Assembly: GCF_014837235.1 (NCBI RefSeq)
Contig: NZ_JACYFT010000001.1
Span: 695,688-759,687, forward strand
DNA from: Limnohabitans radicicola
GTDB lineage: Bacteria; Pseudomonadota; Gammaproteobacteria; Burkholderiales; Burkholderiaceae_C
Direction of reading: 5' to 3'
Length of the DNA: 64,000 nt
Under the pieces are notes generated by a model. The model did not search any database. It was not told the DNA's origin and worked only from the letters and a program-made list of their open reading frames with translations. Positions 6,831 through 23,161 of this stretch are shown here, one piece after another. The position numbers and the translations under genes were made by a program. Positions within the stretch are counted from its first letter, which is position 1. Each line of letters begins with the position of its first letter.

Positions 6831-7912
6831 GCCAGCGCCGCGCTCACGACTTGGCCCGCATCGACCACCACCGTGTCGTCCAGCCGGATGGTGCAGCCGC
6901 GCATGGGCAGGTCAAAGTGGCCTAGCGTGTGGCGGCCCGCCACCTCGTTGGCCCCGGTCGAATACAAAAAGTTGCCCGCAAAAGCACGCAGCTCGGTGCC
7001 GTTGCAGTCGCGCTTGTCGTAAAACGCCATGGCGTCCCAACGCGCCGCCGGGTTCAGGCCAAAGCCCACATGTGAGACGGCATAAGCGGCGCGGTGGCCC
7101 TCAAAGTCTTCCCAGGCTTTCCAGTAGCCGCGCATCATGTCCACGTCCACGCCCTGCCCCTCAATGGCGACCACGCCGTCGTTCTCGATGGTCAGACGGA
7201 TCGTGTCGCGCAAATAGCTTTTGAAGGTCAGGTTCACATCGCCCGGGGCCATGACCAGCGTGCCGTTGACACTGCCTGCAGCCGGGAAAGCCAGCGCCAG
7301 CCCGGCGGGCCAGTGCGACACCATGCCCGGCTTGGGGCAAAAGCCCCACACACCGCCTACCACCGCTTGCTTGTCGCCATGTTTGAGGTTCACACGCAGG
7401 TCGGTGCCTGCGGCAGACGTGACGTGCATTTGTTGTGCGCCACGCAGCTTCTTCATGGCGGCGCGCACCACGCCTTCCAGCGCCGGATCGGGCACGGTGC
7501 GCTCCAGAATTTCAGGGTGCTCGTTGGATACCATCAAGAGGCGCGGCATGTGGCCGTCCACGCCCTTCATGATGGTGGGCAGCTCGGGTGCGTGCAGCAG
7601 GCCTTCGACGGTGCAGTCCACCACCATGTCGGCGCGGGCCAATGCAGCCACAACGGGGCCGAGCTGGCCAATCGCGTCGCTGGCGCCTGTGGAGCGCACA
7701 GGCGCGGGAGCGGTGAGTGCAGGCGTTGTCAGCGTCACCTCGAACACGCGGGCGCCCATGGCCTCCAGTGCAAGGCGGGCCAAGTCCACATTGATCCGAC
7801 GTGATTGGGTTTCGGCCAGAATCGCCACCACTTCGCCCGGCTGCACCTTGCACAGTGTGAAGGTGCGGGTAAACGCCGCAAGCCACCTGTTTTCGATTCG
7901 TTCCACCAGCAT
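6827..7912 (-). CDS. NicX-like 2,5-dihydroxypyridine 5,6-dioxygenase family protein (M29-type fold)
   Basis: A 361-residue protein of the aminopeptidase-T (M29)-like superfamily that includes NicX, the Fe(II) dioxygenase opening the ring of 2,5-dihydroxypyridine. The C-terminal part carries the NicX-type metal ligands in place: His281 in VSHVGFGLNP, and His332 plus Asp334 in GHFDLP. It also has the A-F-x-G-N-F-L-Y-S-T-G segment and the H-W-P-A-G-L and N-G-T-L-V blocks typical of that family. Length fits (NicX is about 350). Start set at 7912 because AAGGAG precedes it; it is the first gene of the operon and faces the flavin reductase gene across a palindromic operator. An M29 peptidase role is the alternative, but the ligand pattern favours a dioxygenase. 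Confidence 0.75.
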   Translation of the reverse strand: MLVERIENRWLAAFTRTFTLCKVQPGEVVAILAETQSRRINVDLARLALEAMGARVFEVTLTTPALTAPAPVRSTGASDAIGQLGPVVAALARADMVVDCTVEGLLHAPELPTIMKGVDGHMPRLLMVSNEHPEILERTVPDPALEGVVRAAMKKLRGAQQMHVTSAAGTDLRVNLKHGDKQAVVGGVWGFCPKPGMVSHWPAGLALAFPAAGSVNGTLVMAPGDVNLTFKSYLRDTIRLTIENDGVVAIEGQGVDVDMMRGYWKAWEDFEGHRAAYAVSHVGFGLNPAARWDAMAFYDKRDCNGTELRAFAGNFLYSTGANEVAGRHTLGHFDLPMRGCTIRLDDTVVVDAGQVVSAALA

Positions 7913-7972
7913 GCTTGTCTCCTTGACGGACAGGTTCTGCGCACGACGCACTCGACCTCATGCCAAACAGTT

Positions 7973-7990
7973 TATATGAATATTCATGTA
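7973..7990. promoter_or_regulatory. palindromic operator between divergent operons (probable MarR site)
   Basis: A perfect 12-bp palindrome, ATGAATATTCAT at 7976-7987, extends to an 18-bp inverted repeat with one mismatched pair. It lies in the 98-bp gap between the NicX-like gene and the flavin reductase-marR pair. A further ATTCAT half-site follows at 7992-7997. Size and symmetry suit a MarR dimer, and the marR gene is the second gene of the rightward transcript. Binding is inferred. Confidence 0.6.
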
Positions 7991-8010
7991 AATTCATCCA
8001 TAATGACCCT

Positions 8011-8571
8011 ATGCGCCCCAACCCACCTCCGACCGTTCAGCCGCTGACCCCTGACTTTGAGGCCCCTCATTTCAGGCAGGCCCTGTCGCGCTTTGCCACA
8101 GGCGTGACCGTCATCACCACCTTCGCGCCCGGCGCACAAAAAGGCGACTCGGCCAGCAGCAGCTTTGTGGGCATCACGGCCAGCTCGTTCAATTCGGTGT
8201 CGCTCACGCCGCCGCTCGTGCTGTGGAGCTTGGGCCACCGGGCCAGCAGCTTGCCGCTGTTCCATGCGGGCACGCACTATGTGGTCAATGTGCTGGCCGC
8301 AGACCAGCTCGACTTGTGCAACCGCTTTGCCTACGGCAAAGGCGACCGCTTTGCAGACACCGCCTACACCCTGGGACAAGCCGGGCTACCCATTTTGAAA
8401 GGCACTCTGGCCTGGTTTGAATGCCACAACCGCAGCCGTCACGAAGAAGGCGACCATGTGATTTTTGTGGGCGAGGTGGAACGCTGCGGCTTCAGCGAGG
8501 GCTCGGCCCCACTCGTGTACCAGGGCGGTCAGTTCAGCACCACCACGCCTCTGCCCCAACCTCTGCCATGA
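8011..8571 (+). CDS. flavin reductase domain protein (HpaC-like, reduced-flavin supplier)
   Basis: A 186-residue flavin reductase-like protein. Typical features are FRQALSRFATGVTVITT at the start, GITASSFNSVSLTPPLVLWSL in the flavin-binding region, and the HYVVNVLAADQ block. The family reduces FMN or FAD with NAD(P)H and hands reduced flavin to a separate monooxygenase. The divergent operon contains an acyl-CoA-dehydrogenase-fold protein without the usual catalytic Glu, which is a candidate partner. Start set at 8011, where the family-like sequence begins; no clear Shine-Dalgarno sequence precedes it. A longer start at 7960 would run through the operator. The stop overlaps the marR start (ATGA). 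Confidence 0.85.
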   Translation: MRPNPPPTVQPLTPDFEAPHFRQALSRFATGVTVITTFAPGAQKGDSASSSFVGITASSFNSVSLTPPLVLWSLGHRASSLPLFHAGTHYVVNVLAADQLDLCNRFAYGKGDRFADTAYTLGQAGLPILKGTLAWFECHNRSRHEEGDHVIFVGEVERCGFSEGSAPLVYQGGQFSTTTPLPQPLP

Positions 8572-9026
8572 CCCACTCAGCTGGCTTTGTCGACGACTAC
8601 CTGGCCTATTTGCTGGCCCGCGCCAGCCATTTGATTTCAAGCGAATTTCATGCCGTGGTCGAAGCCAGCGGGCTGAGCCTGATGGAGTGGCGCGTCATGG
8701 CCAGCCTATCTGGCAAGGAATCGCTGAGCGTGGGTGAACTGGCCGACATCGTGCTGGCCAAACAACCCACCGTGACCAAGCTGGTGGGTCGCATGGCAGA
8801 GGCTGGCTGGGTGCGCCGTGTGAATGCTGCGCACGACAAACGCCAATCGTTAGTGAGCCTGACGCTCGCCGGTCAGCGCAAGGTCAAGCCCCTGCTGGCC
8901 CAGGCACGTACGCACGAAGCACAGGTGCTGAAAGAGATCGGCAACTCGGATGTGACCCAACTCAAGCGTGTTCTGGAACACTTGATCGAGGCACGGTCAT
9001 TGTCCATAAGCCATCCACTCAAGTGA
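8568..9026 (+). CDS. MarR-family transcriptional regulator
   Basis: A 152-residue winged-helix regulator. The DNA-binding part (about residues 30-100) shows LSLMEWRVMASL, the recognition-helix segment AKQPTVTKLVGRMAEAGWV, and the wing R-x3-A-H-D-K-R-Q-S-L-V-S-L-T. MarR proteins usually repress a divergent catabolic operon and release on binding an aromatic acid or CoA thioester. It is translationally coupled to the flavin reductase gene, and an 18-bp inverted repeat suited to a dimer lies upstream of the pair. Its 3' end overlaps the 3' end of the convergent araC-type gene by 8 bases. Confidence 0.9.
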   Translation: MTHSAGFVDDYLAYLLARASHLISSEFHAVVEASGLSLMEWRVMASLSGKESLSVGELADIVLAKQPTVTKLVGRMAEAGWVRRVNAAHDKRQSLVSLTLAGQRKVKPLLAQARTHEAQVLKEIGNSDVTQLKRVLEHLIEARSLSISHPLK

Positions 9027-10026
9027 GTGATTTCTGCCCCTCGGATGCAGTCGCATTGAACAGGTTTTTGTGCCATCTTGAAAATGCACTCAACTCTGAA
9101 AAGCCCAGCAGCAGCGCAACCTCAGACAAGTTTTTTGAGCCATTCTGACGGTAGCTGACCAGCAGCTCACTGCGCATGCTGTTGACCAGGGTTTTGAAGG
9201 TCGTGCCTTCAGCAGCCAGATGGTTGGCAATCGTTCGGCGGTCCACGCCGAGGTGCTGCGCCACCACCTCAACCTTGCAGTGCCCACGCGGCAGCAACAG
9301 CACAATCAGGCGCCGAACCCGCTCCGACATCTTGGCATTGACGCCCATCTCCCGCTCCAGCAGGCGCTGGGAATACTGGGCCATGACCGGATCGGCACCG
9401 AGGTTGGGCGCAGCCAGATCCTTGGCGTTGCAAACGATGTCGTTGAACTCCTGACCAAAGGCGATGTGGCTGCCAAACATGCGCCGGTGGACCTGTGTGT
9501 TGGCTGGTGCTGGATGCCTGAAGGCCACCAGTCGGGGTTCCCACCGTTCACCCAGGAAAATCTGCAGCATGCGGAACAGGGAGCACATGCCCATCTCAAT
9601 GGCTTGAGGTGTAGGCCCCCCACCTTCCAGCAGGAGCTCTTCACGGATGATGACGAGATCTCCCGACTCCACCAACGAGACAGAAAAAGCCTCAGCGTGG
9701 GTGTGCATGTAAGTCACCGAGGTTTCAAGCGCATGCCTGAGCGTCGGTTGATCGCGAAGCAGCAGACCCAGTGGGCCCAAGTTGGACAATCGCCGCGATG
9801 CTGCCATGCGCAAACCAAATCCTGGCTCATTGGCGCGACGTGCCGCCAGCTCCAACAGTTCACCGACAGATGTGGCGGGCAACCTGAGGTCAGGCTCGTT
9901 CAGACAGCGCGGCGACAGGCCGACTTCATCCACCAAAGCATGGGCATCCAGCCCGCATTCACGGGCCACTTGTTCAAAGTTGGTCAGTGTTGCCGCACGC
10001 AAAAAAGCGGTCATAGGGACTTTCAT
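9019..10026 (-). CDS. AraC-family regulator with Arabinose_bd-type N-terminal domain
   Basis: A 335-residue regulator. Residues about 20-210 match the PF12625-type sensor domain common in Burkholderiales AraC proteins (LRLPATSVGELLELAARR, then LGPLGLLLRDQPTLRHAL). The C-terminal 100 residues form the double helix-turn-helix: VEVVAQHLGVDRRTIANHLAAEG and SEVALLLGFSELSAFSRWHK. ATG at 10026 has GAG nearby; ATG at 10014 is an alternative. It faces the transporter gene at 10226 and starts 4 bases from a 77-bp element repeated before the operon at 11284. It is therefore the likely activator of both, with autoregulation. Third-position GC looks lower than in neighbouring genes. Confidence 0.9.
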   Translation of the reverse strand: MKVPMTAFLRAATLTNFEQVARECGLDAHALVDEVGLSPRCLNEPDLRLPATSVGELLELAARRANEPGFGLRMAASRRLSNLGPLGLLLRDQPTLRHALETSVTYMHTHAEAFSVSLVESGDLVIIREELLLEGGGPTPQAIEMGMCSLFRMLQIFLGERWEPRLVAFRHPAPANTQVHRRMFGSHIAFGQEFNDIVCNAKDLAAPNLGADPVMAQYSQRLLEREMGVNAKMSERVRRLIVLLLPRGHCKVEVVAQHLGVDRRTIANHLAAEGTTFKTLVNSMRSELLVSYRQNGSKNLSEVALLLGFSELSAFSRWHKNLFNATASEGQKSLT

Positions 10027-10030
10027 AAGT

Positions 10031-10107
10031 TTCTCGAAATGTCAAGCGAAATTCCCGTTTTGTCAATAGAAAAAGTCCTCTTGTCTTGAGAATGGTGCTC
10101 GCGGTGT
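10031..10107 (+). promoter_or_regulatory. 77-bp repeated regulatory element, copy A (probable AraC operator)
   Basis: Gapless 64/77 match to 11164-11240 in the same orientation. Each copy holds two directly repeated half-sites, CGAAATGTCAA and CGTTTTGTCAA in this copy, whose TGTCAA cores start at 10040 and 10061. The 21-bp spacing is two helical turns, as expected for AraC-type proteins. A strictly conserved TTGTCTTGAGAATGG follows. The element sits between the divergent araC-type and transporter genes. Confidence 0.72.
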
Positions 10108-10225: not shown

Positions 10226-11107
10226 ATGGAAATGACGGATTACCTGGTGTTGCTCAATCGTTGGGCGTTGCTTGCGTTTGTGCTGTGCACGATGACAGGC
10301 GTGGGTCTGCTGCTGCAGCCAGCTCAGATTTTTCAAGTGCTGCGCGAACGTCGCCAATTGGGGCTGACACTGCTGGCCAACTTTGTGGTGCTGCCCAGCC
10401 TGTCTTGGTGGGTGTGTCGTCGCCTGGATCTGGATGTGTCGATACAGGCGGCCATATTGCTCGCGACCACAGCACCCGGCTGTCCGACGCTGCTGCGTCT
10501 CAATGCGGCAGCGCGCGGGGACCAGGCACTGGCTGTCAGTCAGTATGTCTTGCTCTCAGTGCTGACGGTGGCATTTCAGCCTTTATTGCTGCCGTGGCTG
10601 TTGCAGGGGGTGCAGGTCAGTTCCATCGATATCGTTCGCAGTTTGGGATTGACGGTGTTGGTGCCTCTTGTCATGGGCTTGTCGGTGCGTGCGCGCTGGC
10701 CGACATTTGCGGAGCGTGCCAGACTGGTGATCGAAAAAGTCGGATCGCTCAGTGCCTTGCTGGTCTTGATTTTGTTTCCAGTGCTGTATTTCGAAGCCAT
10801 GCTGAGCGTACTCCGGCAAGGTGCGCTGGCTGCGCTGTTGCTGTACATGCCCTTGGCGCTCGGTGCGGGATGGTTGTTGGGTTCGGCCTCAACACCGTCT
10901 TACCGTCGCGTGCTGACGATGTGTTGTGGCCAAGGCAATATGGGAATTGCTTTTGTCAGCGCGGCTGCCAATTTCAAGGACCCGACGGTCGGCATCACTC
11001 TGATCGTCATGTTGTTTCTGACCTTGTTGCCCTTGGTCCCCATGGCGCTGTTTTTTGGGCGCAGCGCGGCGACGGCAGACAGAATGAATGAGGCAGTCCA
11101 GCGCTAA
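10226..11107 (+). CDS. bile acid:sodium symporter (BASS) family transporter
   Basis: A 293-residue integral membrane protein with about 9-10 hydrophobic segments. Family signatures are ATTAPGCPTLLRLNAAARGD in the first half and CGQGNMGIAFVSAAANF in the second, the paired sodium-binding motif regions of BASS transporters. Members import bile acids, pyruvate, pantoate or other organic anions with sodium. The start follows a weak AAAGGAATGG context; a second ATG two codons later is possible. Copy A of the 77-bp element is upstream, linking it to the AraC regulator and the operon beginning at 11284, so it may import that operon's substrate. Codon use is less GC-rich than in the flanking housekeeping genes. 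Confidence 0.82.
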   Translation: MEMTDYLVLLNRWALLAFVLCTMTGVGLLLQPAQIFQVLRERRQLGLTLLANFVVLPSLSWWVCRRLDLDVSIQAAILLATTAPGCPTLLRLNAAARGDQALAVSQYVLLSVLTVAFQPLLLPWLLQGVQVSSIDIVRSLGLTVLVPLVMGLSVRARWPTFAERARLVIEKVGSLSALLVLILFPVLYFEAMLSVLRQGALAALLLYMPLALGAGWLLGSASTPSYRRVLTMCCGQGNMGIAFVSAAANFKDPTVGITLIVMLFLTLLPLVPMALFFGRSAATADRMNEAVQR

Positions 11108-11163
11108 CGACATAGCCCGCTGTTACCGCCTTGATCTGATGGCGGATAGGGACTTCTACCAAT

Positions 11164-11240
11164 TTCCCGAAATGTCAAACAAATTTCCCATTTCGTCAAA
11201 GGAAAAACCCCACTTGTCTTGAGAATGGCGCTCTCGGTGT
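11164..11240 (+). promoter_or_regulatory. 77-bp repeated regulatory element, copy B (probable AraC operator)
   Basis: Second copy of the element at 10031-10107, with half-site cores TGTCAA at 11173 and CGTCAA at 11194 (21-bp spacing) and the identical TTGTCTTGAGAATGG tail. It lies 43 bases before the TauD-like gene and so controls the six-gene operon. The differences fall mostly outside the cores. Confidence 0.72.
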
Positions 11241-11283
11241 CTTGAAGCAAGACCCCATTTGACCGACCACTGAGGAGCCATTC

Positions 11284-12132
11284 ATGAAAGTCATTCCACT
11301 CACCTGCGCTTTGGGTGCCGAGATCCAGGGCGTCCATCTGGCTGAAGCAGGCCGCAATGCCGACATGGCGGGCGAAGTCAAAGCACTGCTGCTCAAGCAC
11401 AAGGTGCTGTTTGCTCGCGATCAGGACATGACCGATGCCGAGCATGCGGCTTTTGCGCGCATTTTTGGCGACCTGGAAAGCCACCCTCTGGCCCCCAGCA
11501 CCGATTCGGAGCCAGGCATCATCAACATCTGGAAAACGCCTGACAGCCCACCCGAGCGTTACGAAAACGCTTGGCACCACGATGCCACTTGGCGCGAATT
11601 GCCGCCCATGGGCGCTGTGCTGCGTTGCCTCGAATGCCCACCCGTCGGTGGTGACACCATGTGGGCCAATATGGAGCTGGCTTACGAGCGCCTGCCTGAC
11701 CACATCAAGGAAACCATCGAAGGCTTGAAGGCTCGCCACAGCATGGAAGCCACCTTCATGGCGGCCAAATCAGCCAAGGAACGACTGGCGATGAAAGCGC
11801 GCTTCCCGGACCCCGAGCACCCTGTTGTGCGTACCCACCCCGAAACCGGCAACAAGAGCCTGCTCACAGGCGGCTTCATGACGCACTTCACCAACTACCA
11901 CACCGCACGCAACGTGCGCTTTGGTCAGGACTGGCAGCCCGGCGCCTCGGCCTTGCTGAGCTACCTGATCAGCCAGACCTTCATTCCCGAGTACCAGATG
12001 CGTTGGCGCTGGAGCCCGGGTTCGATCGCCATCTGGGACAACCGCTGCACACAGCATTACGCCGTGATGGATTACCCACCGTGTGTGCGTCGCATGAACC
12101 GCGCCACCATCAAGGGCGATCGCCCGATTTAA
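11284..12132 (+). CDS. TauD/TfdA-family Fe(II)/2-oxoglutarate-dependent dioxygenase
   Basis: A 282-residue dioxygenase. The iron ligands are visible as H-x-D in WHHDATW and the distal His in CTQHYAVMDY. The 2-oxoglutarate-binding Arg is in RRMNRATIKGDRP, which closely parallels the end of TauD. The family hydroxylates a C-H next to a heteroatom, releasing sulfite from sulfonates, phenol from phenoxyacetates or an aldehyde from sulfate esters. A GAGGAG ribosome-binding site lies before the ATG. It is the first gene of the operon behind copy B of the 77-bp element. The YeiH-type exporter three genes downstream would fit a sulfonate or sulfate ester, but this is only a hint. Confidence 0.88.
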   Translation: MKVIPLTCALGAEIQGVHLAEAGRNADMAGEVKALLLKHKVLFARDQDMTDAEHAAFARIFGDLESHPLAPSTDSEPGIINIWKTPDSPPERYENAWHHDATWRELPPMGAVLRCLECPPVGGDTMWANMELAYERLPDHIKETIEGLKARHSMEATFMAAKSAKERLAMKARFPDPEHPVVRTHPETGNKSLLTGGFMTHFTNYHTARNVRFGQDWQPGASALLSYLISQTFIPEYQMRWRWSPGSIAIWDNRCTQHYAVMDYPPCVRRMNRATIKGDRPI

Positions 12133-12142
12133 GGAGAACATC

Positions 12143-13588
12143 ATGGAACGCGAATTGGGTTTGAACCTGGAGCTTCGTCACGAATGGGCCAATCTGGGTG
12201 ATGTGCGCTTGCACTACGTCACCGGTGGTCAGGGACCGACCATCGTGCTGCTGCACGGCTGGCCCCAAACCTGGTACATGTGGCGAGATGTGCTACCGGG
12301 TCTGATGCAACGTTACCGGGTGATCGCGGTCGACATGCGTGGCCTGGGTGACTCGTCACGACCCGCGACCGGTTACGACACACGCACCGTGGCACAAGAC
12401 ATCTGGCGTCTGATGACCGAGGTGCTGGACGAGCGGTGCTTCCATGTGGTGGCCCACGATTGGGGCGGGCCAGTGGCTTATGCGCTGGCTGCACTGCACC
12501 GTCAGGCAGTGATGTCGATGGCCATCTTCGATGCGCCCGTGCCGGGTGATGGCTCAGCGCTCACCGCCATGGGGCGCTGGCACTTTGGCTTCCACGCCGA
12601 AAGCGACTTGCCCGAGGCTCTGATCGAAGGCCGTGAAGACATTTACCTGCGCCACATGTTCAGCAAAGCCGGGGCTCGGCCCGATGCCGTTTCGGAAGAA
12701 GCCCAGCGCGAATACATCCGGGCCTACTCGCAGCCTGGAGCCATGCGGGCGGGCTTCAACTACTACCGCGAAATGGCTCGCAACGCACGGGACAACAAAG
12801 CCTTCATTGCACAAGGCAAGCTGCAAATGCCCATTCTGGTGTACGGCGGCGGCAACAAGATCGTGGGTCGTTCCATGTATGCGGTGGATTCCTGGCAGCG
12901 CGTCGCCTCCGACGTGCGCGGGGGTGTGGCCGAAGGCTGCGGCCACTGGATTCCTGAAGAGCGTCCCGCCTGGGTGGTGGAACGTCTGATGGAGTTTTTC
13001 ACCGACGTCGATGCAGGCCGTGCAGCCGCAGCCAATGCCCCTCGCCCTGCGCATGCTGCAGCGGTCTCTGCCGCTTCCCAAAATTTACCCGCCCCAACCA
13101 CTCAAAAGGCAAACGCCATGTTCCACGAAACCATTGACACTGCGCTGATCGACGTTGAAGCGCTTCCCTGGATGCCTTTTTCGCCTTACAGCGAAGAGAT
13201 CTTCCTCAAACTCATCAAAGTGGACCCCATTCGTGGCGAATGGACCACGCTGCTGAAGTTGCCTCCCTATACCGAGCTGCCGATGCACCACCATTCCGGT
13301 ACCGTGATGGTGTGGACAGTGACTGGCAGCTGGCGCTACAAAGAACACAACTGGGTCGCCAACGCTGGCAGCTTCGTCTTTGAAACGGCCGCTTCGCGCC
13401 ACACGCCTGTCACGGTAGGCAATGAAGAGGTCATCACACTGAACATTATTCAGGGCGACTGGAACGTGATGTCACCTGAAGGCGCCGTGTTGGCCATTGA
13501 GAACTGGAAATCCATGGTGGACCGCTACGTCAATTTCTGCAAAGCACAGGGCCTTGAAGCGATCGACGTGACCAGCTTCAGCGCATAA
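12143..13588 (+). CDS. fusion protein: epoxide-hydrolase-type alpha/beta hydrolase + cupin dioxygenase-like domain
   Basis: A 481-residue two-domain protein. Residues 1-290 are an epoxide hydrolase-like alpha/beta hydrolase: oxyanion motif HGWPQTWYMW, nucleophile Asp106 in AHDWGG, His268 in GCGHWIPEE. The place of the acid Asp reads G-G-G-N, so it may be Asn239. Residues 291-325 are an Ala/Pro-rich linker. Residues 326-481 are a cupin related to 2,4'-dihydroxyacetophenone dioxygenase, with metal-ligand candidates His382-384, His402 and His420. An ATG at 13118 (Met326) has AAGG 8 bases before it, so the cupin may also be made alone. Either order of reaction, or a scaffolded two-step reaction, is possible. 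The gene starts 10 bases after the dioxygenase gene. Confidence 0.85.
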   Translation: MERELGLNLELRHEWANLGDVRLHYVTGGQGPTIVLLHGWPQTWYMWRDVLPGLMQRYRVIAVDMRGLGDSSRPATGYDTRTVAQDIWRLMTEVLDERCFHVVAHDWGGPVAYALAALHRQAVMSMAIFDAPVPGDGSALTAMGRWHFGFHAESDLPEALIEGREDIYLRHMFSKAGARPDAVSEEAQREYIRAYSQPGAMRAGFNYYREMARNARDNKAFIAQGKLQMPILVYGGGNKIVGRSMYAVDSWQRVASDVRGGVAEGCGHWIPEERPAWVVERLMEFFTDVDAGRAAAANAPRPAHAAAVSAASQNLPAPTTQKANAMFHETIDTALIDVEALPWMPFSPYSEEIFLKLIKVDPIRGEWTTLLKLPPYTELPMHHHSGTVMVWTVTGSWRYKEHNWVANAGSFVFETAASRHTPVTVGNEEVITLNIIQGDWNVMSPEGAVLAIENWKSMVDRYVNFCKAQGLEAIDVTSFSA

Positions 13589-13660
13589 AGCGCAGACCAT
13601 CGCGTCGATCAAGGCTCACCATTGACCTGACTCACTTCAGAAAATAACGAGGAGACAAAC

Positions 13661-14650
13661 ATGCGCCAACCCTTTAACCTTCGTCGCCACTGGCTTCAAG
13701 CAGCGGGCATCAGTGCCTTGTTGATGGCTGGATGGCCTGTGCAGGCCCAGAACTATCCCGACAAGCCCGTTCGCATCGTCGTCGGCGGCCCGGCCGGTGG
13801 CGCGGCCGACGTCACGGCCCGTCTGCTGGCTGAAAAAATGTCACCTATCCTGGGGCAGCCCATTCTGGTCGACAACAAACCCGGTGCAGGGGGCTTGCTC
13901 GGTATTCAGGAGTTGCTCAAATCACCGCGAGATGGTTACACCCTGATGGTGAACATCAGCGGGGTGGTTTCCGAAGTTCCACATGCGATCAAGGTTCCTT
14001 TCGATCCTTTCAAGGTCTTGCAGCCGCAGGTTGAAATGGCACGTGGCGGTCTGGTGCTCGTCACCAATACTCAAACAGGTGCACAAAACCTGGACGGCTT
14101 CATCAAGTATGTCAAGGCCAACAAGGACAAAATCAGTTTTGCCTCCTACAGCGCGGGCACCGTTTCGCACACGCTAGGGCTGGAGTTGAACAAGGTGGCT
14201 GGACTCGACATGGTGCATGTCGGCTACAAGGGCTCACCCCCTGCCTTGCAGGATCTCATTGGTGGCAGTGTTCAGGCGATGTTCGATGGGTCCGGCAATG
14301 TACTACCGCATGTCCGGTCGGGCAAGCTCAAGGCACTGGCGGTCACATCGCCGCAGCGCATGAGCCTGTTTCCCGATGTGCCCACATTTACCGAATTGGG
14401 CTACAAGGATCTGACAGAGATTGTGTCCCTCATGCTGTTCTCCACGCCCGATGTGCCTGCCCCCGTTCAAGCCAAAGTGCGCGAGGCGGCCATGAAGGCC
14501 TTGCAGGACCCCAAGCTGCGCGAAACCTTCAACAACCTGGGTCTTGCCATGGGTACAGCCGCCACACCCGACGAGTTGATGGCGGGCCTGCGAGCTGCGT
14601 CCGACAAGCAAGGCGCCATGCTCAAGTCGGTCGGTTTCAAAATTGAATGA
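13661..14650 (+). CDS. Bug-family (TctC) periplasmic binding protein
   Basis: A 329-residue secreted receptor. The signal peptide spans about residues 1-29 (RRHWLQAAGISALLMAGWPV, cleavage near V-Q-A-Q), followed by Y-P-D-K-P-V-R-I-V-V-G-G-P-A-G-G, the Bug ligand-loop signature. An ACGAGGAGA ribosome-binding site precedes the ATG. Its position between the hydrolase-cupin fusion and the exporter suggests periplasmic capture of the operon's carboxylate substrate. No TctAB membrane genes are adjacent, so it either uses a distant TctAB pair or works with the BASS transporter or in sensing. It is divergent in sequence from the other Bug receptor in the window (2129-3133). Confidence 0.9.
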   Translation: MRQPFNLRRHWLQAAGISALLMAGWPVQAQNYPDKPVRIVVGGPAGGAADVTARLLAEKMSPILGQPILVDNKPGAGGLLGIQELLKSPRDGYTLMVNISGVVSEVPHAIKVPFDPFKVLQPQVEMARGGLVLVTNTQTGAQNLDGFIKYVKANKDKISFASYSAGTVSHTLGLELNKVAGLDMVHVGYKGSPPALQDLIGGSVQAMFDGSGNVLPHVRSGKLKALAVTSPQRMSLFPDVPTFTELGYKDLTEIVSLMLFSTPDVPAPVQAKVREAAMKALQDPKLRETFNNLGLAMGTAATPDELMAGLRAASDKQGAMLKSVGFKIE

Positions 14651-14739
14651 TGATGGCCCGAGCCGGCTGTGCCCGGTTCAGGCTTTCGGTTTATCTGGCT
14701 GACGAAATCCGTTGGCCTTTTTTTTGAAAGAGGTTCCTC

Positions 14740-15756
14740 ATGCTGGCCCAGATGATGTCATGGCCATTACAACGGTGGTTGGCACCCCGCTGGCGAGGTT
14801 TCTGGGTCTGTGCGGTCGTGGCCATTGCCGCCAGGTTCGTGTCCGAGCACTACGGTGCACCGGTCATGCTCATGGCCCTGCTGCTGGGCATGGCGCTGAA
14901 CTTTCTCTCGGTTGAAGGGGCGTGCAAACCGGGCATCGACGTTACGGCACGTCAGGTGCTGCGCATCGGCGTGGCCCTGTTGGGTCTGCGCATCACGCTC
15001 GACCAAGTCACCGCTTTGGGCTGGCAGCCTGTGCTGATGGTGCTGGGTGCTGTGGCCTTCACCATTGCGCTGGGCGTGGTGCTGGCCCGCTGGATGGGGT
15101 ATCGCGTGTTCTTTGGCTTGTTGACCGGCGGCGCGGTGGGCATTTGCGGTGCGTCCGCTGCATTGGCGCTGTCGGCCGCTTTGCCCAATCATCCGCTCAA
15201 GGAAAAAGCCACGCTGTTCACCGTCATCGGGGTCAGCACTTTGTCGACCCTAGCCATGGTCTTGTACCCCTTGCTCACGCATGGGCTGGCCCTGACGGAT
15301 GCCCAAGCCGGGTTCTTCATCGGCGCGACCATTCACGACGTGGCGCAGGTGGTAGGTGCGGGCTACAGCATTTCGCGCGAGGCGGGTGATCTGGCCACCT
15401 TGGTCAAGCTGCTGCGCGTGGCGATGCTGCTGCCCGTGATTGCGCTGGTGGCCTGGGTCACGGCGCGGCATATGGCCAGCGAAGGCGAGGGCCAAACGCA
15501 AACGCAGAAGCCTCCGCTCTTGCCCGGGTTTGCGGTGGCGTTTGCGGTGCTGGTGCTCGTCAACAGCACGGCTTGGTTACCTCAGACAGTGGTTCAGGTG
15601 GGACAAGCCACATCGCAGTGGTGCCTGATAGCAGCGATTGTGGCCATCGGCATGAAGACACACCTCAAGGACATGCTGAACGTGGGCTGGAAACCGATCG
15701 TGCTGATGGTCAGCGAGACCGTGGCGCTGGCGGCTTTTGTCTATGCCTTGATTTGA
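14740..15756 (+). CDS. YeiH-family (UPF0324) putative sulfate/anion exporter
   Basis: A 338-residue membrane protein with about 9-10 hydrophobic helices. Typical YeiH/UPF0324 features are GMALNFLSVEGACKPGIDVTAR, VLRIGVALLGLRITLDQV, the GGAVGICGASAALALSA motif and IGATIHDVAQVVGAGYSIS. Family members are annotated as putative sulfate exporters; firm transport data are limited. GAGG precedes the ATG. In this operon it may export sulfite-derived sulfate, or another anion released by the TauD-like enzyme. The 89-base gap before it contains no strong terminator. Confidence 0.85.
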   Translation: MLAQMMSWPLQRWLAPRWRGFWVCAVVAIAARFVSEHYGAPVMLMALLLGMALNFLSVEGACKPGIDVTARQVLRIGVALLGLRITLDQVTALGWQPVLMVLGAVAFTIALGVVLARWMGYRVFFGLLTGGAVGICGASAALALSAALPNHPLKEKATLFTVIGVSTLSTLAMVLYPLLTHGLALTDAQAGFFIGATIHDVAQVVGAGYSISREAGDLATLVKLLRVAMLLPVIALVAWVTARHMASEGEGQTQTQKPPLLPGFAVAFAVLVLVNSTAWLPQTVVQVGQATSQWCLIAAIVAIGMKTHLKDMLNVGWKPIVLMVSETVALAAFVYALI

Positions 15757-15785
15757 CTTTGAACTGATTCTTTCACAAGGAAAAC

Positions 15786-16847
15786 ATGCACTTTCTTGAC
15801 GATTCCCTCTTGCCCGAGAACCAGCAAAAGCTGGTGATCCAGGTTGCGCCTTATGGGCCGCAATGGATTCCCGGCGACAGCGACGACATCCCTGTCACCA
15901 TGGACGAGCAGATCCAGAAAGCCGTGGACTGCTATAACGCGGGGGCCACCGTGCTGCACGTGCATGTGCGCGAAGCCGATGGCAAAGGCAGCAAGCGCCT
16001 GTCGATGTTCAACGAGATGCTGGCGCGCCTGCGCGAGGCCGTGCCCAAAATGATTCTGCAGGTGGGCGGCTCGATTTCGTTTGCCCCCGAGGACGAAGGC
16101 CAGGCCGCCAAATGGCTGTCGGACGACACGCGTCACATGCTGGCGGACCTGAATCCCAAACCCGACCAAGTGACCGTGGCCGTGAACAGCAGCCAGATGA
16201 ACATCATGGACCTGATGATGGATGGCGATTTCACAGGCACCTCGTTTGAAAACCCGCAACTGCAGGCTGCCTACGAAGACATGGTGATCCCCTCCAACCC
16301 CAGCTGGCACCGAGAACACATTCGTCGACTGGTGGCTGCAGGCATCCAGCCGCACTTCATGCTGGGGCATGTGCACCAGCTCGAATCGGTCGAACGCTTG
16401 ATTCGCCGTGGCCACTACAACGGCCCTCTGATCCTCAATTACGTGGCCATCGGTGGCAGCCTGGCTGGCCTGAACCCGGTTGACATGCTGGAATTCGTGC
16501 GGCGCGTGCCCGACGGTGCGGTGCTGACCCTCGAAACCCTCAACCGCCATGTGTACCCCATGATGGCCATGGCCATCGCTCTGGGCATGCATGTGCGCTG
16601 CGGCATCGAAGACACCCTCAATGGCCCCCACCGGGAACGCATGACCTCGGTGCAGCAGGTGGTGCACATGGTCCAGCAGGCCCGTCTGCTCAACCGCGAC
16701 ATTGCCAATGGCGACGATGCCCGAGAGATTTACCAGATCGGCCAGTTCTACAAAGACACCGACGACACCCTGGCTCGCTTGGGCTACACGCCCAACCGCC
16801 ACCCCGGCGAACGCGGTATACCGGTTCGGGGTTTTCCGAATGTCTGA
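15786..16847 (+). CDS. beta-keto acid cleavage enzyme (BKACE, DUF849; 3-keto-5-aminohexanoate cleavage family)
   Basis: A 353-residue TIM-barrel enzyme. The zinc-binding H-x-H occurs in VLHVHVREADGKGS, with GGSISF, the glycine-rich I-G-G-S-L segment and HVRCGIEDTLNGP further on. BKACEs condense a beta-keto acid with acetyl-CoA and split it into acetoacetate and a new CoA ester; substrate specificity varies widely across the family. It follows the exporter by 29 bases with AAGGA before the ATG. The stop lies 8 bases inside the following SDR gene. In this operon it probably performs the last C-C cleavage on a beta-keto acid made by the dioxygenase, hydrolase and SDR steps. Confidence 0.88.
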   Translation: MHFLDDSLLPENQQKLVIQVAPYGPQWIPGDSDDIPVTMDEQIQKAVDCYNAGATVLHVHVREADGKGSKRLSMFNEMLARLREAVPKMILQVGGSISFAPEDEGQAAKWLSDDTRHMLADLNPKPDQVTVAVNSSQMNIMDLMMDGDFTGTSFENPQLQAAYEDMVIPSNPSWHREHIRRLVAAGIQPHFMLGHVHQLESVERLIRRGHYNGPLILNYVAIGGSLAGLNPVDMLEFVRRVPDGAVLTLETLNRHVYPMMAMAIALGMHVRCGIEDTLNGPHRERMTSVQQVVHMVQQARLLNRDIANGDDAREIYQIGQFYKDTDDTLARLGYTPNRHPGERGIPVRGFPNV

Positions 16848-17673
16848 TGTGCAGCTCAAAGACAAAGTCGTTCTGGTCACGGGCGCCGGTCTGGGTTTGG
16901 GCGGCACCATCGCGCAGGCCATGGCCCGACAAGGGGCCTCGCTGGTCATTTGCGATATCGACATGGTCGCGCTGCACGCCACGCAGGCAGCGGTGGAAGC
17001 GCTCGGTGCCCAGTGCCTGGCGCTGGCATGCGATGTGTCCGACAGCGCTGCGGTCGACCAGATGTTTGACCAGGCCGGGCAGCGTTTTGGCACTGTGGAC
17101 GTGCTGGTCAACAACGCCGCCCGTGTGCCCAACACACCTGCCGAGGCTGAGCGGCGCAATCGGCATTACGCCTACATGACCACACCCATGCCGCGCCAGG
17201 CCCTGGGCATCGTAGCCTCGCTGTCCGACGAGGATTGGCTCAAGTGGTGGGGCGTGAACATGCATGGCGTGTTCTTCTGCACCCGTGCCGCCTTGCGTTT
17301 CATGGTGCCCCAAAAATCCGGCCGCATCATCAACATCGCATCCATCGCCGGGCTGGGTGCCAACAGCCTGCACAGCCCGGGCTATTCGGCCACCAAGGCG
17401 GGCGTTATCAACCTGACAAAAACCACCGCGCTCGATGTGGCGGGGGCCAATGTTTACGTCAATGCCGTTGCTTGTGGTGGCGTGCTCACGCCGGACTTCG
17501 AGGTGTACCTTGAAAGCACAACCGAGGCGCAGGTCAACCGCCTCTACCAGATGGTGCCGAGTGGACGTTTGGGTCGCCCCGAGGAATATGCCAATGTCGC
17601 GGTCTTTCTGGCCGCACAAGATCATTACCTCGTAGGACAGGTCATTAGCCCGAATGGAGGCTTTGTGATCTGA
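16840..17673 (+). CDS. SDR-family NAD(P)-dependent oxidoreductase
   Basis: A 277-residue classical short-chain dehydrogenase. The cofactor motif is TGAGLGLG, the acidic residue after beta-2 is in VICDID (favouring NAD), followed by NNAA, the Ser in INIASIAG and the catalytic Y-x3-K in GYSATKAG. An insertion of about 20 residues follows the N-N-A-A strand (PNTPAEAERRNRHYAYMTTP), longer than usual, and probably shapes the substrate pocket. The start overlaps the BKACE stop by 8 bases. It is the last gene of the AraC-linked operon and may oxidise a beta-hydroxy acid to the beta-keto acid consumed by the BKACE. An imperfect hairpin (17692-17700 with 17716-17724) follows but lacks a T-tract. Confidence 0.87.
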   Translation: MSDVQLKDKVVLVTGAGLGLGGTIAQAMARQGASLVICDIDMVALHATQAAVEALGAQCLALACDVSDSAAVDQMFDQAGQRFGTVDVLVNNAARVPNTPAEAERRNRHYAYMTTPMPRQALGIVASLSDEDWLKWWGVNMHGVFFCTRAALRFMVPQKSGRIINIASIAGLGANSLHSPGYSATKAGVINLTKTTALDVAGANVYVNAVACGGVLTPDFEVYLESTTEAQVNRLYQMVPSGRLGRPEEYANVAVFLAAQDHYLVGQVISPNGGFVI

Positions 17674-17730: not shown

Positions 17731-18126
17731 TCAGTCCGGCACCACCGCTGTCACTTCGATCTCCACTTTGGCCCGGTCTTCCACCAGATCGGCCACCTGC
17801 ACCAAGGTCATGGCCGGGTAGTGCTTGCCCATGACTTCCTGGTAGACCTTGCCCAGTTCGCGCCCTCGCGCCAGGTATTCCTTCTTGTCTTTGACGTACC
17901 AGGTCATGCGCGCCATGTGCTGTGGGCCTGCGCCTGCGCACGCGAGTGTGTCGACGATATTTTGCAGGGCCTGTCTGCATTGGGCAACGAAGTCGTCGGT
18001 CTCGAACTGGCATTGACCGTTCCAGCCGATCATGCCCGCCACAAACACCATGCGGCCACGCGCTTCGATGCCGTTGGCATAGCCTTTGGCGGGTGCCCAG
18101 CCTTCGGGTTGGAGGATGTTGAACAT
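17731..18126 (-). CDS. RidA-family protein lacking the deaminase arginine
   Basis: A 131-residue YjgF/RidA-fold protein (trimer in the family). It shows the usual MVFVAGMIGWN, CRQALQNIVDTLACAGAG and KVEIEVTAVV blocks. Where archetypal RidA has the catalytic Arg in F-P-A-R-S, this protein reads Y-P-A-M-T, so 2-aminoacrylate deaminase activity of the RidA type is unlikely; it belongs with the Rid subgroups that lack this Arg. It is the last gene of the 2-aminobenzoyl-CoA-type operon. That pathway makes enamine/imine intermediates after ring reduction, so an accessory role in their hydrolysis is plausible but inferred. Confidence 0.85.
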   Translation of the reverse strand: MFNILQPEGWAPAKGYANGIEARGRMVFVAGMIGWNGQCQFETDDFVAQCRQALQNIVDTLACAGAGPQHMARMTWYVKDKKEYLARGRELGKVYQEVMGKHYPAMTLVQVADLVEDRAKVEIEVTAVVPD

Positions 18127-18136
18127 GGTGGGTTCC

Positions 18137-19807
<1,671 letters not shown>

Positions 19808-19808
19808 A

Positions 19809-20993
19809 TCAGCCTTTCAACACATCCTTGCCAATGATCAGCTGCTGCACTTCGGTGGCACCTTCGTAAATGCGCAGCGCCCGAATCTCGCGGTACAGCG
19901 ACTCCACCATCACACCTTTTTTGACACCCATGCCGCCGTGCATCTGCACCGCCATGTCGATGATCTGCTGCGCGTTTTCGGTCGCGGTCATCTTGGCCAT
20001 GGCCGCCTCACGGGTGATGCGCCCGCCTTGGTCGCGCAGCCAAGCGGCGCGGTAGGTCAAGAGCGTGGCCGCGTCCAGCATGGTGGCCATCTGGGCGATC
20101 TTGGTCTGGGTGATCTGAAAGTCACCCAAGGTTTGGCCAAACATCTTGCGTGAGCGCGCCCAGCTGATGGACTCGTGCAGCGCACGCCGCCCAAAGCCCA
20201 AAGCGGCCGCGGCCACCGAGGTGCGGAACACATCGAGCGTGGCCATGGCGACCTTGAAGCCTTGGCCCGCTTCGCCAATGCGTTGCTTGGCAGCGACCTT
20301 GCAGTTGTCAAACTTGAGCGTGGCCAGCGGGTGGGGCGCCACCACGTCGATGCGCTCTTCAATCGACAGACCGGGCGTGTCGGCATCGACAATGAAAGCC
20401 GTGATGCCGCGTGCGCCGGGCGCTTCGCCCGTGCGGGCGAACACCACATAAAAGTCGGCGATGCCGCCGTTGCTGATCCAGGTCTTGCGGCCGTTGAGCA
20501 CATAGCCGTCTGCCGTGGCCGTCGCGCTGCACTGCATGGCGGCCACATCGGAGCCTGCATCGGGCTCGCTTAGGGCAAAGGCGCTCAAGGCCTGACCCGA
20601 CGCCACACGCGACAGGTAGCGCTGCTTTTGATCGGCTGTGCCCATGAGGCTGATGGCGCCTGTGCCCAAGCCCTGCATGGCAAACGCGAAGTCAGACAAG
20701 CCATTATGAAAAGCCAGTGTTTCTCGCAGCAGGCAGAGCTGGCGGGTGTCGATCACATCCGATGCGGCGCCGTAGGCCGTGCCCGAGACCGCGTGTTTGA
20801 GCCAGCCGCCGCTGCCCAGCAGGCGCACCAGACGGATGCATTCGGCGTCCACCGCGTCGCGGCTTTCGTCGTGGTGCGCGTGGACAAGGTGCTCTTGGCA
20901 CCAAGCATCCAGCCGCACTTTGAAGTCGCGGTGGCTGTTGTCAAAGAAAGGCCAGTCGAGTTCTGGCGGGTGATTGGCTGGGTGGTCTGACAT
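19809..20993 (-). CDS. acyl-CoA dehydrogenase
   Basis: A 394-residue flavoprotein with a normal acyl-CoA dehydrogenase layout: [17 protein letters not shown] (flavin contact), [10 protein letters not shown], and the C-terminal loop [20 protein letters not shown], where the catalytic Glu of Y-E-G-A-T is present. It probably introduces the alpha,beta double bond in the non-aromatic CoA thioester formed after 2-aminobenzoyl-CoA hydroxylation/reduction. The upstream enoyl-CoA hydratase gene lies 3 bases away and the ligase gene follows after 1 base, indicating one transcript. Contrast with the Glu-less ACAD-fold protein at 4768-6036. Confidence 0.9.
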
Positions 20994-20996
20994 GGC

Positions 20997-21857
20997 TCAG
21001 TCCCCTTCAAACACGGGCGTTTGCTTGGCCACAAAGGCGTGATAAGCCCGGTGGAAGTCGTTGGTGGCCATGCAGATGGCTTGGGCCTGGGCTTCGGCCT
21101 CAATGGCTTCGTCCACGCCCATGTTCCATTCTTGTTGCAGCATTTTTTTGGTGATGCCGTTGGCAAAGGTGGGGCCTGCCACCAGCTGGGCGGCGATGGC
21201 CTGTGCATCGGCCAACACGGTGCCTGCCTCGCACACGCGGTTGTAAAAACCCCAGCGCTCTGCTTCTAGCGCGCCCAGGCCACGCCCGGTGAACAGCAGC
21301 TCGCTGGCACGGCCCTGGCCGATGATGCGCGGCAAAAGCGCGCACGCGCCCATGTCACATCCGGCCAAGCCGACCTTGTTGAACAGGAAATAAGTCTTGC
21401 TGCGCTCGGTGCCGTAGCGCAGGTCAGACGCCATGGCCAGGATGGCCCCTGCGCCCGCGCACACGCCATCGATGGCCGCGATGATGGGTTGTGGGCAAGC
21501 GCGCATGGCCTTGACCAGATCGCCCGTCATGCGGGTGAAGGCCAAGAGGCCGGGCATGTCGAGCTTCGTGAGCGGCCCGATGATTTCGTGTACATCGCCG
21601 CCCGAACAGAAGTTGCCGCCCTCGCCCGTGATGACCACCGCATGCACATCGGGCGCGTAAGGCAAGGCGCGGAAAAAGTCGCGCAGTTCGGCGTACGAGT
21701 CAAACGACAGCGGGTTCTTGCGCTCGGGGCGGTTCAGGCTCACCGTGGCCACACCGTCTTTGACAGACAGCAAAAAATGCTCGGGCTGGTAGCCCGCCAT
21801 GGGCTGGTTGTGGCGGGGCAGCTGGTGCGGCTGACCGGGCAGGTAGCGTTGGCTCAT
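20997..21857 (-). CDS. enoyl-CoA hydratase/isomerase family protein
   Basis: A 286-residue crotonase-fold protein. It shows the N-terminal [20 protein letters not shown], the oxyanion-hole block [16 protein letters not shown] and [20 protein letters not shown]. The first catalytic Glu of classical hydratases lies in the A-G-A-G-A-I-L-A segment region, where it is not obvious, so the exact reaction (hydration, isomerisation or ring hydrolysis) is open. It sits in the 2-aminobenzoyl-CoA-type operon between marR and the ACAD gene; the start overlaps the marR stop by 4 bases. Confidence 0.87.
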
Positions 21858-22363
21858 TTTGTCTCCTCAGAATTTGTAGGGCTGCCGGACTTCAAGGTGC
21901 CCAGCAATTTGTGCAGTTGTTCTTGTTGGCTTGCCACCAGCGGCGACAGCAGCTCGACGACCCAGCCTTCGTGGGCCTGGGCCATGGCCGCAAATGCGCT
22001 GCGCCCGGCCTCGGTCAGACTGACGGTGTAGGAGCGGCGGTCGCTGGCCTGCATTTGCCGCTGCACCAGTTGTTCTTTTTCGAGCTGGTCGACGATGCTG
22101 GTGACGTTGCCGCCCGTGACCATCATGCGGCGCGACAGCTCGCTCATCGACAAGCCTTGCGGTTCGCGCTCCAGTTGCGCCATCAGGTCAAAGCGCGGCA
22201 GCGTGATGCCAAACTGTTCGCGCAAGCGTTGGCGGATGGTGTCTTCTATGCGGGTGGTGGCCGACAACAGACGCAGCCACAGGCGCAGTGAAGCGTGGTG
22301 ATCGGCGTGCGCGCGCTTTTCCATGTCCACAGAGGCCATGTCAGTGTCTTGTCGTGCGCTCAT
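21854..22363 (-). CDS. MarR-family regulator of the 2-aminobenzoyl-CoA-type operon
   Basis: A 169-residue MarR protein. Winged-helix part: [21 protein letters not shown], the recognition helix [20 protein letters not shown] and wing [13 protein letters not shown]. The start at 22363 overlaps the stop of the SDR gene (TCATGA on the plus strand), and its stop overlaps the start of the hydratase gene. The long upstream frame extension is an artefact of the SDR gene. The gene lies inside the operon it probably regulates; clustered TTGAG/CTCAA half-sites lie before the operon's first gene (25532-25550). Likely effector: the aryl-CoA ester. Confidence 0.9.
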
Positions 22364-23160: not shown

Positions 23161-23161
23161 C

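What the first reader, a model, noticed from the sequence alone, without database searches (positions are those of the whole stretch)
10226..17673. Candidate undescribed catabolic system: TauD dioxygenase, hydrolase-cupin fusion, BKACE and exporter
The operon combines a TauD-type hydroxylase, a two-domain hydrolase/cupin, a Bug receptor, a YeiH exporter, an SDR and a BKACE, under the same element as a BASS importer. A logical order is import, oxidative removal of a heteroatom group, hydrolysis or ring/C-C cleavage, SDR oxidation to a beta-keto acid, and BKACE cleavage with acetyl-CoA to acetoacetate. A sulfonate or sulfate ester substrate would explain the TauD and YeiH members. I know no described pathway with this gene set.
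Basis: inference. Interest (0 to 1): 0.75.

Follow-up and report, generated by a model that had tools for sequence, protein, structure and literature searches.

The report
Conserved uncharacterised TauD/BKACE catabolic locus
This is a real, widely shared set of bacterial genes that looks built to import and break down an as yet unidentified organic acid, perhaps one carrying a sulfur group, by an oxygen-using first step and a final cleavage that yields acetoacetate.

Summary
Window 10226-17673 encodes BASS, TauD-type dioxygenase, epoxide-hydrolase-like/cupin fusion, Bug receptor, YeiH-type exporter, BKACE and SDR. Two near-identical tandem operators precede BASS and TauD and occur nowhere else in the genome at up to 3 mismatches, beside a divergent AraC gene. 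The TauD falls in two clades apart from true taurine dioxygenases. Of 57 loci carrying it, 35 have the same BKACE subfamily, 32 a quinone oxidoreductase, 45 an AraC, 10 the same YeiH subfamily; 62 control loci have 0, 1, 1, 1. The genome's only two YeiH genes lie beside its two TauD/BKACE loci. Acetoacetate-CoA ligase genes lie within about 2 kb of TauD in three relatives, fitting BKACE chemistry. BASS was seen only here; the window-type SDR at three places. Best reading: an AraC-controlled aerobic dissimilation route in which TauD opens a C-S (or other heteroatom) bond and BKACE cleaves a beta-keto acid. The sulfur link rests on exporter genes; the pocket test is not diagnostic. Substrate and order of steps are unknown.

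The parts
9019..10026 (-). AraC-family regulator (Arabinose_bd + HTH_18), divergent; probable regulator of the locus
   Evidence: PF12625 153.5 bits; NCBIfam QhpR equivalog 175.3 under its cut-off 250; an AraC gene near TauD in 45 of 57 loci, 1 of 62 controls
10030..10066 (+). Operator copy 1: tandem half-sites (TTTCnCGAAATGTCAA type) with 21-base period, upstream of BASS and abutting the AraC start
   Evidence: 2 matches in window vs 0 in 100 shuffles; 2 in genome; similar tandem sites upstream of TauD- or QOR-led operons in relatives
10226..11107 (+). BASS-type (SBF) importer; not seen beside TauD in the other loci mapped
   Evidence: PF01758 63.8 bits; no BASS hit in the mapped relatives
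11163..11199 (+). Operator copy 2, upstream of TauD
11284..12132 (+). TauD-family Fe(II)/2-oxoglutarate dioxygenase, clade 1; positions of the Fe ligands (H98, D100, H258) and 2OG Arg (R269) kept
   Evidence: PF02668 194.8; residues (roles recalled); tree; nearest solved structure 5vn6, named taurine dioxygenase by its depositors
12143..13588 (+). Fusion: Cif/epoxide-hydrolase-type alpha/beta hydrolase (about 1-300) + DAD-type cupin (about 326-481)
   Evidence: PF00561 and PF12973; 7jqx Cif-like 1 E 1.1e-63 and 3ebr cupin E 7.7e-54; 5bpx/4p9g DAD E about 1e-12; model mean pLDDT 82.1, under 50 at 1-7, 142-147 and the linker 304-333; top folds Cfl2, Cfl1, CorEH
13661..14650 (+). Bug/TctC solute receptor
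   Evidence: PF03401 199.2
14740..15756 (+). YeiH/PSE-type putative exporter, of a subfamily tied to these loci
   Evidence: PF03601 225.5; TIGR00698 128.1 under its cut-off 232.6; tree
15786..16847 (+). BKACE (beta-keto acid cleavage enzyme), locus-specific subfamily
   Evidence: PF05853 197.3 over cut-off 24.8; 24 plasmid records of 72,556 hold a relative at E 1e-60
16840..17673 (+). SDR dehydrogenase
   Evidence: PF00106 162.7; relatives 57% in L079 and 55% in L200, near a BKACE in both

Best explanation
An AraC-controlled aerobic dissimilation locus for an anionic organic substrate, most likely a sulfonate or sulfate ester with a hydrophobic body. The carriers (BASS, Bug) bring it in; the TauD-family dioxygenase hydroxylates the carbon that bears the heteroatom, so that the group leaves (sulfite or sulfate, removed by the YeiH exporter) and a carbonyl appears. 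The epoxide-hydrolase-like domain and the DAD-type cupin then hydrolyse and oxidatively cut a C-C bond next to an oxygenated carbon, the SDR oxidises a hydroxyl, and BKACE splits the resulting beta-keto acid with acetyl-CoA to acyl-CoA plus acetoacetate. Shown by computation: gene families, kept Fe/2OG ligand positions, shared operator, recurrent clustering, subfamily-specific BKACE and YeiH, acetoacetate-activating genes in relatives. Inferred: every reaction, their order, and the substrate.
For: Clustering: of 57 TauD loci, 35 with the BKACE subfamily, 32 QOR, 45 AraC, 31 MFS, 10 YeiH subfamily; 62 control loci 0, 1, 1, 1, 1. Among the 39 loci found with TauD alone: BKACE 30, QOR 29, AraC 29, YeiH 6. 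In 20 genomes 11 of 27 YeiH and 25 of 52 BKACE rows lie within 15 kb of such a TauD, about 0.3 and 0.5 expected. BKACE searched alone on plasmids: 24 records, of which 23 are among the 40 listed of 51 TauD records. Own genome: a second locus QOR-TauD2-BKACE2-DsbA-small serine hydrolase with Bug and YeiH; its only two YeiH genes are at these two loci. Tandem operators. Acetoacetate-CoA ligase over its curated cut-off within about 2 kb of TauD in L152, L201, L203; a CoA-transferase pair over cut-off beside the YeiH of L164. Fusion of hydrolase and cupin in 5 loci, adjacent but unfused in others. A TauE/SafE-family gene (PF01925, 117.8 bits) beside the AraC of L041/L034. In PMC5320631 (passages) TauE and TauZ are named as exporters of sulfite and sulfate in taurine use; that TauZ belongs to the YeiH family is recalled.
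Against: YeiH of the subfamily is near only 10 of 57 TauD loci, four of them alike and of one bacterial family, f55. The substrate of YeiH proteins was not shown by anything read here. The TauD positions H70 and R270 (sulfonate-binding in E. coli, recalled) are kept, but the alignments show them also in PlaO1 and Rv3406, so they do not single out sulfonates; Y73 is replaced and N95 aligns with Glu, an Asn lying one column on. Some YeiH of the clade sit elsewhere: L163-L165 without TauD or BKACE in those stretches, L160 with BKACE but no TauD. I did not look systematically for sulfonate uptake or sulfite oxidation genes. Acyl-CoA ligases stand where BKACE is missing at several clade-1 loci, so the final step differs between relatives. 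BKACE and TauD on one plasmid record are not always neighbours (e.g. NZ_CP070610, NC_010625).
Confidence: 0.5

Rival explanations
1. Same conserved catabolic unit, but sulfur-free: TauD acts as a TfdA/RdpA-like hydroxylase on an ether, amine or plain C-H of an acid to make the beta-keto acid; YeiH exports an organic anion.
For: YeiH of the subfamily not found near 47 of 57 TauD loci, some of them cut short; Y73 replaced and N95 doubtful; H70/R270 also in PlaO1, a non-sulfonate enzyme by recall; DUF1302/DUF1329, MMPL, acyl-CoA dehydrogenase and thiolase neighbours fit hydrophobic acids.
Against: The same YeiH subfamily sits at both loci of the own genome and at loci of alphaproteobacteria, betaproteobacteria and family f55 in one supported clade.
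Confidence: 0.35
2. Sulfur scavenging: TauD frees sulfite for assimilation under sulfur starvation, and the other genes merely lie near.
For: Family name and distant kinship with taurine dioxygenase; in L205 genes with PAPS-reductase-like and APS-kinase domains lie about 3-6 kb from TauD2.
Against: Score 230.2 under the taurine dioxygenase cut-off 313; separate clades; the recurrent neighbours are BKACE, QOR, CoA ligases and exporters, not tauABC as beside the yardstick TauD of L195.
Confidence: 0.07
3. The genes serve the adjoining aroyl-CoA operon (17731-25495) or the NicX-like cluster (4768-9026).
For: Direct neighbourhood in the window.
Against: Those operons have MarR genes of their own; their key genes were not seen beside TauD in the relatives mapped, except one 29% hit of the OYE-fusion protein in L142.
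Confidence: 0.05

Closest known systems
E. coli/Pseudomonas taurine dioxygenase TauD
   Same: Family, Fe-ligand and 2OG-Arg positions, H70 and R270 positions (roles recalled)
   Different: Under the curated cut-off, own clade, Y73 to A/T/V/S/L, F104 mostly to W; not with tauABC
Taurine dissimilation with sulfite/sulfate exporters TauE/TauZ (PMC5320631, passages)
   Same: Exporter genes beside a sulfonate-type enzyme
   Different: No Xsc, Tpa or TauXY named in the annotated stretches read, not searched for otherwise; oxygenase entry and BKACE exit
BKACE enzymes (Kce and relatives, Pfam PF05853)
   Same: Family; HxH (H58, H60) and ED (E275, D276) kept (roles recalled)
   Different: Under the NCBIfam equivalog cut-offs that it hits; 23-32% to 9 of 14 other BKACEs from the same genomes, no hit to the remaining 5
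2,4'-dihydroxyacetophenone dioxygenase (DAD)
   Same: Cupin kinship, HxH and a later His aligned
   Different: Distant (E about 1e-12), fused to a hydrolase
Cif-like/CorEH epoxide hydrolases
   Same: D106 aligns with D123 of Cfl1; D130, H147, H268 and a Tyr (Y208) also align (roles recalled); same fold
   Different: Fused to a cupin, within a catabolic operon

Membership tests
Taurine dioxygenase (NCBIfam NF007104) | curated score cut-off 313 | tested here: not met
   230.2 bits
Fe(II)/2OG TauD/TfdA family | HxD...H iron ligands and 2OG Arg | tested here: met
   H98, D100, H258, R269; in 62 family rows H98/D100 in 62, H258 and R269 in 61 with one gap
Sulfonate-specific TauD | sulfonate-binding residues H70, Y73, N95, S158, R270 (recalled) | tested here: inconclusive
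   H70 62 of 62, R270 61 of 62 with 1 gap; Y73 replaced, N95 aligned with Glu; H70/R270 also in PlaO1 and Rv3406
BKACE PF05853 | Pfam gathering score | tested here: met
   197.3 over 24.8
Known BKACE functions (Kce, dioxohexanoate, 3-oxoadipate) | equivalog cut-offs 382, 430, 350 | tested here: not met
   114.3, 92.2, 78.4
YeiH (TIGR00698) | subfamily cut-off 232.6 | tested here: not met
   128.1; the wider PF03601 is met
Epoxide hydrolase, Cif type | Asp nucleophile, acid, His base, His/Tyr ring openers | tested here: met
   D106, D130, H268, H147, Y208 align with Cfl1; roles recalled; the Tyr pair Y207-Y208 leaves open which one acts; activity not testable
DAD cupin dioxygenase | cleavage of 2-hydroxyketones | not testable with these tools
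   sequence kinship only
Sulfonate dissimilation system | release of sulfite from the carbon substrate | not testable with these tools
   indirect: exporter linkage

The most novel reading that the evidence does not exclude
A new class of organosulfur dissimilation, shared by Alpha-, Beta- and Gammaproteobacteria and Actinomycetota and often on plasmids: two sister clades of TauD-like desulfonating (or desulfating) dioxygenases turn beta-substituted acids into beta-keto acids, a dedicated BKACE subfamily cleaves them to acyl-CoA and acetoacetate, and a dedicated YeiH subfamily exports the sulfur; in the window's branch a fused epoxide hydrolase-cupin adds an oxidative C-C cut.
Probability: 0.35. 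Interest if true: 0.75.

Novelty: new variant of a known kind. Interest (0 to 1): 0.55.

Why it matters
It defines a recurrent catabolic gene set that I could not match to a described pathway, with testable enzymes, a predicted operator, a pathway context for two solved proteins (5vn6, deposited as taurine dioxygenase, and 3ebr, deposited as uncharacterised cupin), and a possible function for a YeiH subfamily. If the sulfur reading is right, it is a further route by which soil and water bacteria mineralise sulfonated or sulfated compounds.

Tried and rejected
Literature (held library only; listings capped): TauD with BKACE (0 papers), with '3-keto-5-aminohexanoate cleavage' or sulfate exporter (5 papers, each holding two of the three terms, none both TauD and the cleavage term), with sulfonate/quinone oxidoreductase terms, with DAD (30 of 159 listed), with lignosulfonate/aryl sulfonate terms; BKACE/DUF849, vceA (15 of 378), TauZ/sulfite exporter (15 of 65). 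I read titles and abstract starts; none of those showed this gene set, which does not prove its absence from the papers. PMC6366072 was listed with three of the terms, but its main text held none. PMC11837543 (passages) names VceA/VceB on vanilloyl acetic acid; the passages do not say that VceA is a BKACE, so I dropped that parallel. The sulfonate pocket as proof was rejected. The BKACE model is poor (mean pLDDT 65.0) and was not used. Enantiomer-specific paralogues (as RdpA/SdpA, recalled) for the two TauD clades: untested.

Selection and controls. 18 of the 57 loci came from the hydrolase-cupin protein (window), so hydrolase and cupin counts are selected there; 39 came from TauD or BKACE/YeiH-guided stretches (L161 and L162 were fetched for their BKACE). 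The 57 include several from one genome (window and L125; L041, L161, L162), four alike loci of family f55, and short contigs. The 62 controls are hydrolase homologues without such a TauD; 40 of 62 are at least 15 kb long. My first control count had left MFS, Bug and the hydrolase out of the control; one search repeats it with the same limits: MFS 1 of 62, Bug 0 of 62. L060 (3.2 kb, hydrolase-ABH2-YeiH) is probably a cut clade-1 locus but is counted as a control. L160 and L194, with BKACE but no TauD, are in neither set. Dropped as repeats: L127, L128 (same place as L056) and L130 (overlaps L129). Loci L198-L206 came later and are not in the 57; L198 adds one more YeiH (57%) about 4 kb from a TauD. 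In the YeiH tree the clade of 17 rows holds one non-linked long-branch row (L177), two rows of one place (L056, L127), L160 with BKACE but no TauD, and L163-L165 without mapped TauD or BKACE in those stretches, although the L164/L165 YeiH lies about 13 kb from TauD. L122 and L151 carry more distant YeiH (35%, 32%) that I did not count; L151 falls outside the clade. The 52 BKACE rows include gene fragments. The operator matrix was built on sites from six of the loci scanned; several upstream stretches per locus were tested against 60 letter shuffles each; a tandem site scored 2 above the best shuffle in 28 of 50 loci, 5 of those 28 being training loci, and some of the scores are weak (L045, L147). 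The tandem site was not found this way in the other 22.
Full report
What is there. The DNA explains 'the same element': a 37-base tandem site, two half-sites with a 21-base period, stands at 10030-10066 (just upstream of AraC and BASS) and at 11163-11199 (upstream of TauD). The pattern gives 2 hits in the window against 0 in 100 shuffles, and a slightly looser form only those 2 in the whole genome. Related tandem sites lie upstream of TauD- or QOR-led operons in part of the relatives (limits under Tried and rejected). So BASS and the TauD operon are probably two transcripts under one AraC-type regulator.

Is it conserved? Mapping shows AraC(-) | TauD, hydrolase, cupin as the core in beta- and alphaproteobacteria, fused in five loci (window, Variovorax L040, Burkholderiaceae MAG L041, Curvibacter L042, Caballeronia L043), separate and in swapped order in the sphingomonad loci that have both, and separate in the same order in Dechloromonas L045. 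Bug, an acyl-CoA ligase and YeiH follow in L041 and L042; the ligase of L042 meets the curated model for 3-(methylthio)propionyl-CoA ligase (965 bits, cut-off 822, read from the same gene in L035). BKACE of the subfamily is at 5 of the 18 loci found this way: window, L045, L056, L064, L079. In 299 genomes of the family a full-length fusion (71-74% identity) was found in 2 others, G138 and G194; the three same-genus genomes listed had no match at E 1e-40.

A sister system. A TauD search of plasmids (51 of 72,556 records at E 1e-50) and of genomes (13 of 399 in the order, 13 of 398 in the phylum at E 1e-85, the own genome and others in both) uncovered a second arrangement: AraC | quinone oxidoreductase, TauD2, BKACE2, small serine hydrolase, MFS, sometimes DsbA, Rieske and YeiH, in varying order, in Novosphingobium ES2-1, Rhodococcus gordoniae, Azoarcus KH32C, Caballeronia, Streptomyces and others. 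The window's own genome has one such locus (L125: YeiH, Bug, AraC | QOR, TauD2, BKACE2, DsbA, serine hydrolase). In Dechloromonas and Chakrabartia both arrangements lie side by side (L045, L056). Of 16 genomes with a clade-1 TauD, 9 have a further TauD at least 65% identical to the L125 one (my count from the rows; neighbourhoods). The tree puts clade 1 and clade 2 together, apart from E. coli TauD and the tauABC-linked TauD of P. aeruginosa; cupin loci occur in both clades (L047, L124 and L154 in clade 2).

How strong is the linkage? Over 57 TauD loci: BKACE subfamily 35, QOR 32, small serine hydrolase 28, MFS 31, AraC 45, Bug 16, YeiH subfamily 10; over 62 control loci 0, 1, 0, 1, 1, 0, 1. 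For the 39 loci not found through the hydrolase-cupin protein: 30, 29, 25, 22, 29, 13, 6. In 20 genomes, 11 of 27 YeiH and 25 of 52 BKACE rows lie within 15 kb of a TauD, against about 0.26 and 0.52 expected. The own genome holds exactly two YeiH genes, one at each locus. YeiH proteins of most YeiH-bearing loci fall in one clade (100/99) of 17 rows, one of them a non-linked long branch; not all the others have TauD beside them (details under Tried and rejected). BKACE searched on its own finds 24 plasmid records, 23 of which are among the 40 listed of the 51 TauD records, in several cases far apart on one megaplasmid.

What does it do? TauD has its iron-ligand and 2OG-arginine positions. The hydrolase is of the Cif/CorEH epoxide-hydrolase type. 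The cupin is nearest to 3ebr, deposited as uncharacterised, and then to 2,4'-dihydroxyacetophenone dioxygenase, with the HxH and a later His aligned. BKACE keeps its HxH and ED motifs. Three relatives carry acetoacetate-CoA ligase within about 2 kb of TauD, well over the curated cut-off 520.9 (771.3, 814 and 802 bits: Streptomyces L152; Dechloromonas L201 and Caballeronia L203), and the YeiH of L164 adjoins a CoA-transferase pair. This fits acetoacetate as a product. At clade-1 loci a ligase often stands where BKACE is missing, and both would yield acyl-CoA (inference).

Sulfur or not? For: YeiH linkage; a TauE/SafE-family gene beside the AraC of L041/L034; in PMC5320631 (passages) TauE and TauZ as sulfite/sulfate exporters of taurine use; a phosphate acetyltransferase gene beside the YeiH of L163, as in that taurine pathway. 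Against or neutral: YeiH was not found at 47 of 57 TauD loci; the H70/R270 pair is not specific; the YeiH of L164/L165 sits with MMPL, BNR and CoA-transferase genes. I therefore give the sulfur version about one half.

Extra hints on the substrate. DUF1302, DUF1329 and BNR proteins on the Dechloromonas contig, DUF1302/1329 at Azoarcus, and acyl-CoA dehydrogenase and thiolase genes at Caballeronia L123 point to a hydrophobic or amphiphilic acid (inference). The Dechloromonas contig also has BKACE (66%), CMD and SDR (55%) together, and Novosphingobium L079 has CMD-BKACE-TauD-cupin-hydrolase-SDR; so the BKACE/SDR pair of the window is not a chance neighbour, though rare.

Verdict. A real, conserved catabolic system, not matched here to a described pathway, made of known enzyme families: a new variant of a known kind. 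The pathway order and the substrate are open.

Noticed in passing
window 17731-25495: Convergent minus-strand genes: RidA, benzoate-CoA-ligase-family enzyme, acyl-CoA dehydrogenase, enoyl-CoA hydratase, MarR, SDR and a bifunctional salicylyl-CoA 5-hydroxylase/oxidoreductase (1330.8 bits, cut-off 1078): an aroyl-CoA pathway, possibly for anthranilate or salicylate.
   Followed up: partly
window 6827-7951: Protein without Pfam or NCBIfam hit at the limits used but with a clear solved relative, 2,5-dihydroxypyridine 5,6-dioxygenase 7cn3 (E 2.6e-52), beside an alpha/beta hydrolase, flavin reductase and MarR: a likely pyridine-ring catabolic cluster with acyl-CoA ligase and dehydrogenase genes.
   Followed up: partly
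L198 and L199 (Variovorax YR216 contig): Three TauD genes, two BKACE of the subfamily, YeiH and an acyl-CoA ligase within about 28 kb, with two short proteins of 121 and 147 aa that hit no Pfam family at E 0.001.
   Followed up: partly
L042:4585-4621: A copy of the tandem operator (3 substitutions from my pattern) upstream of a methyl-accepting chemotaxis protein gene at 4782-6347, hinting at taxis to the substrate.
   Followed up: partly
L205:13629-17322: Genes with PAPS-reductase-like, GTPase/APS-kinase and inositol-phosphatase domains (a sulfate-activation set by its look) about 3-7 kb from TauD2.
   Followed up: partly
L163:155-2148: Phosphate acetyltransferase next to a YeiH of the same clade near a contig start.
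   Followed up: no
G000 contig C11:368080-368874: A third BKACE in the same genome; no TauD hit of the reference set in its 20-kb surroundings.
   Followed up: no
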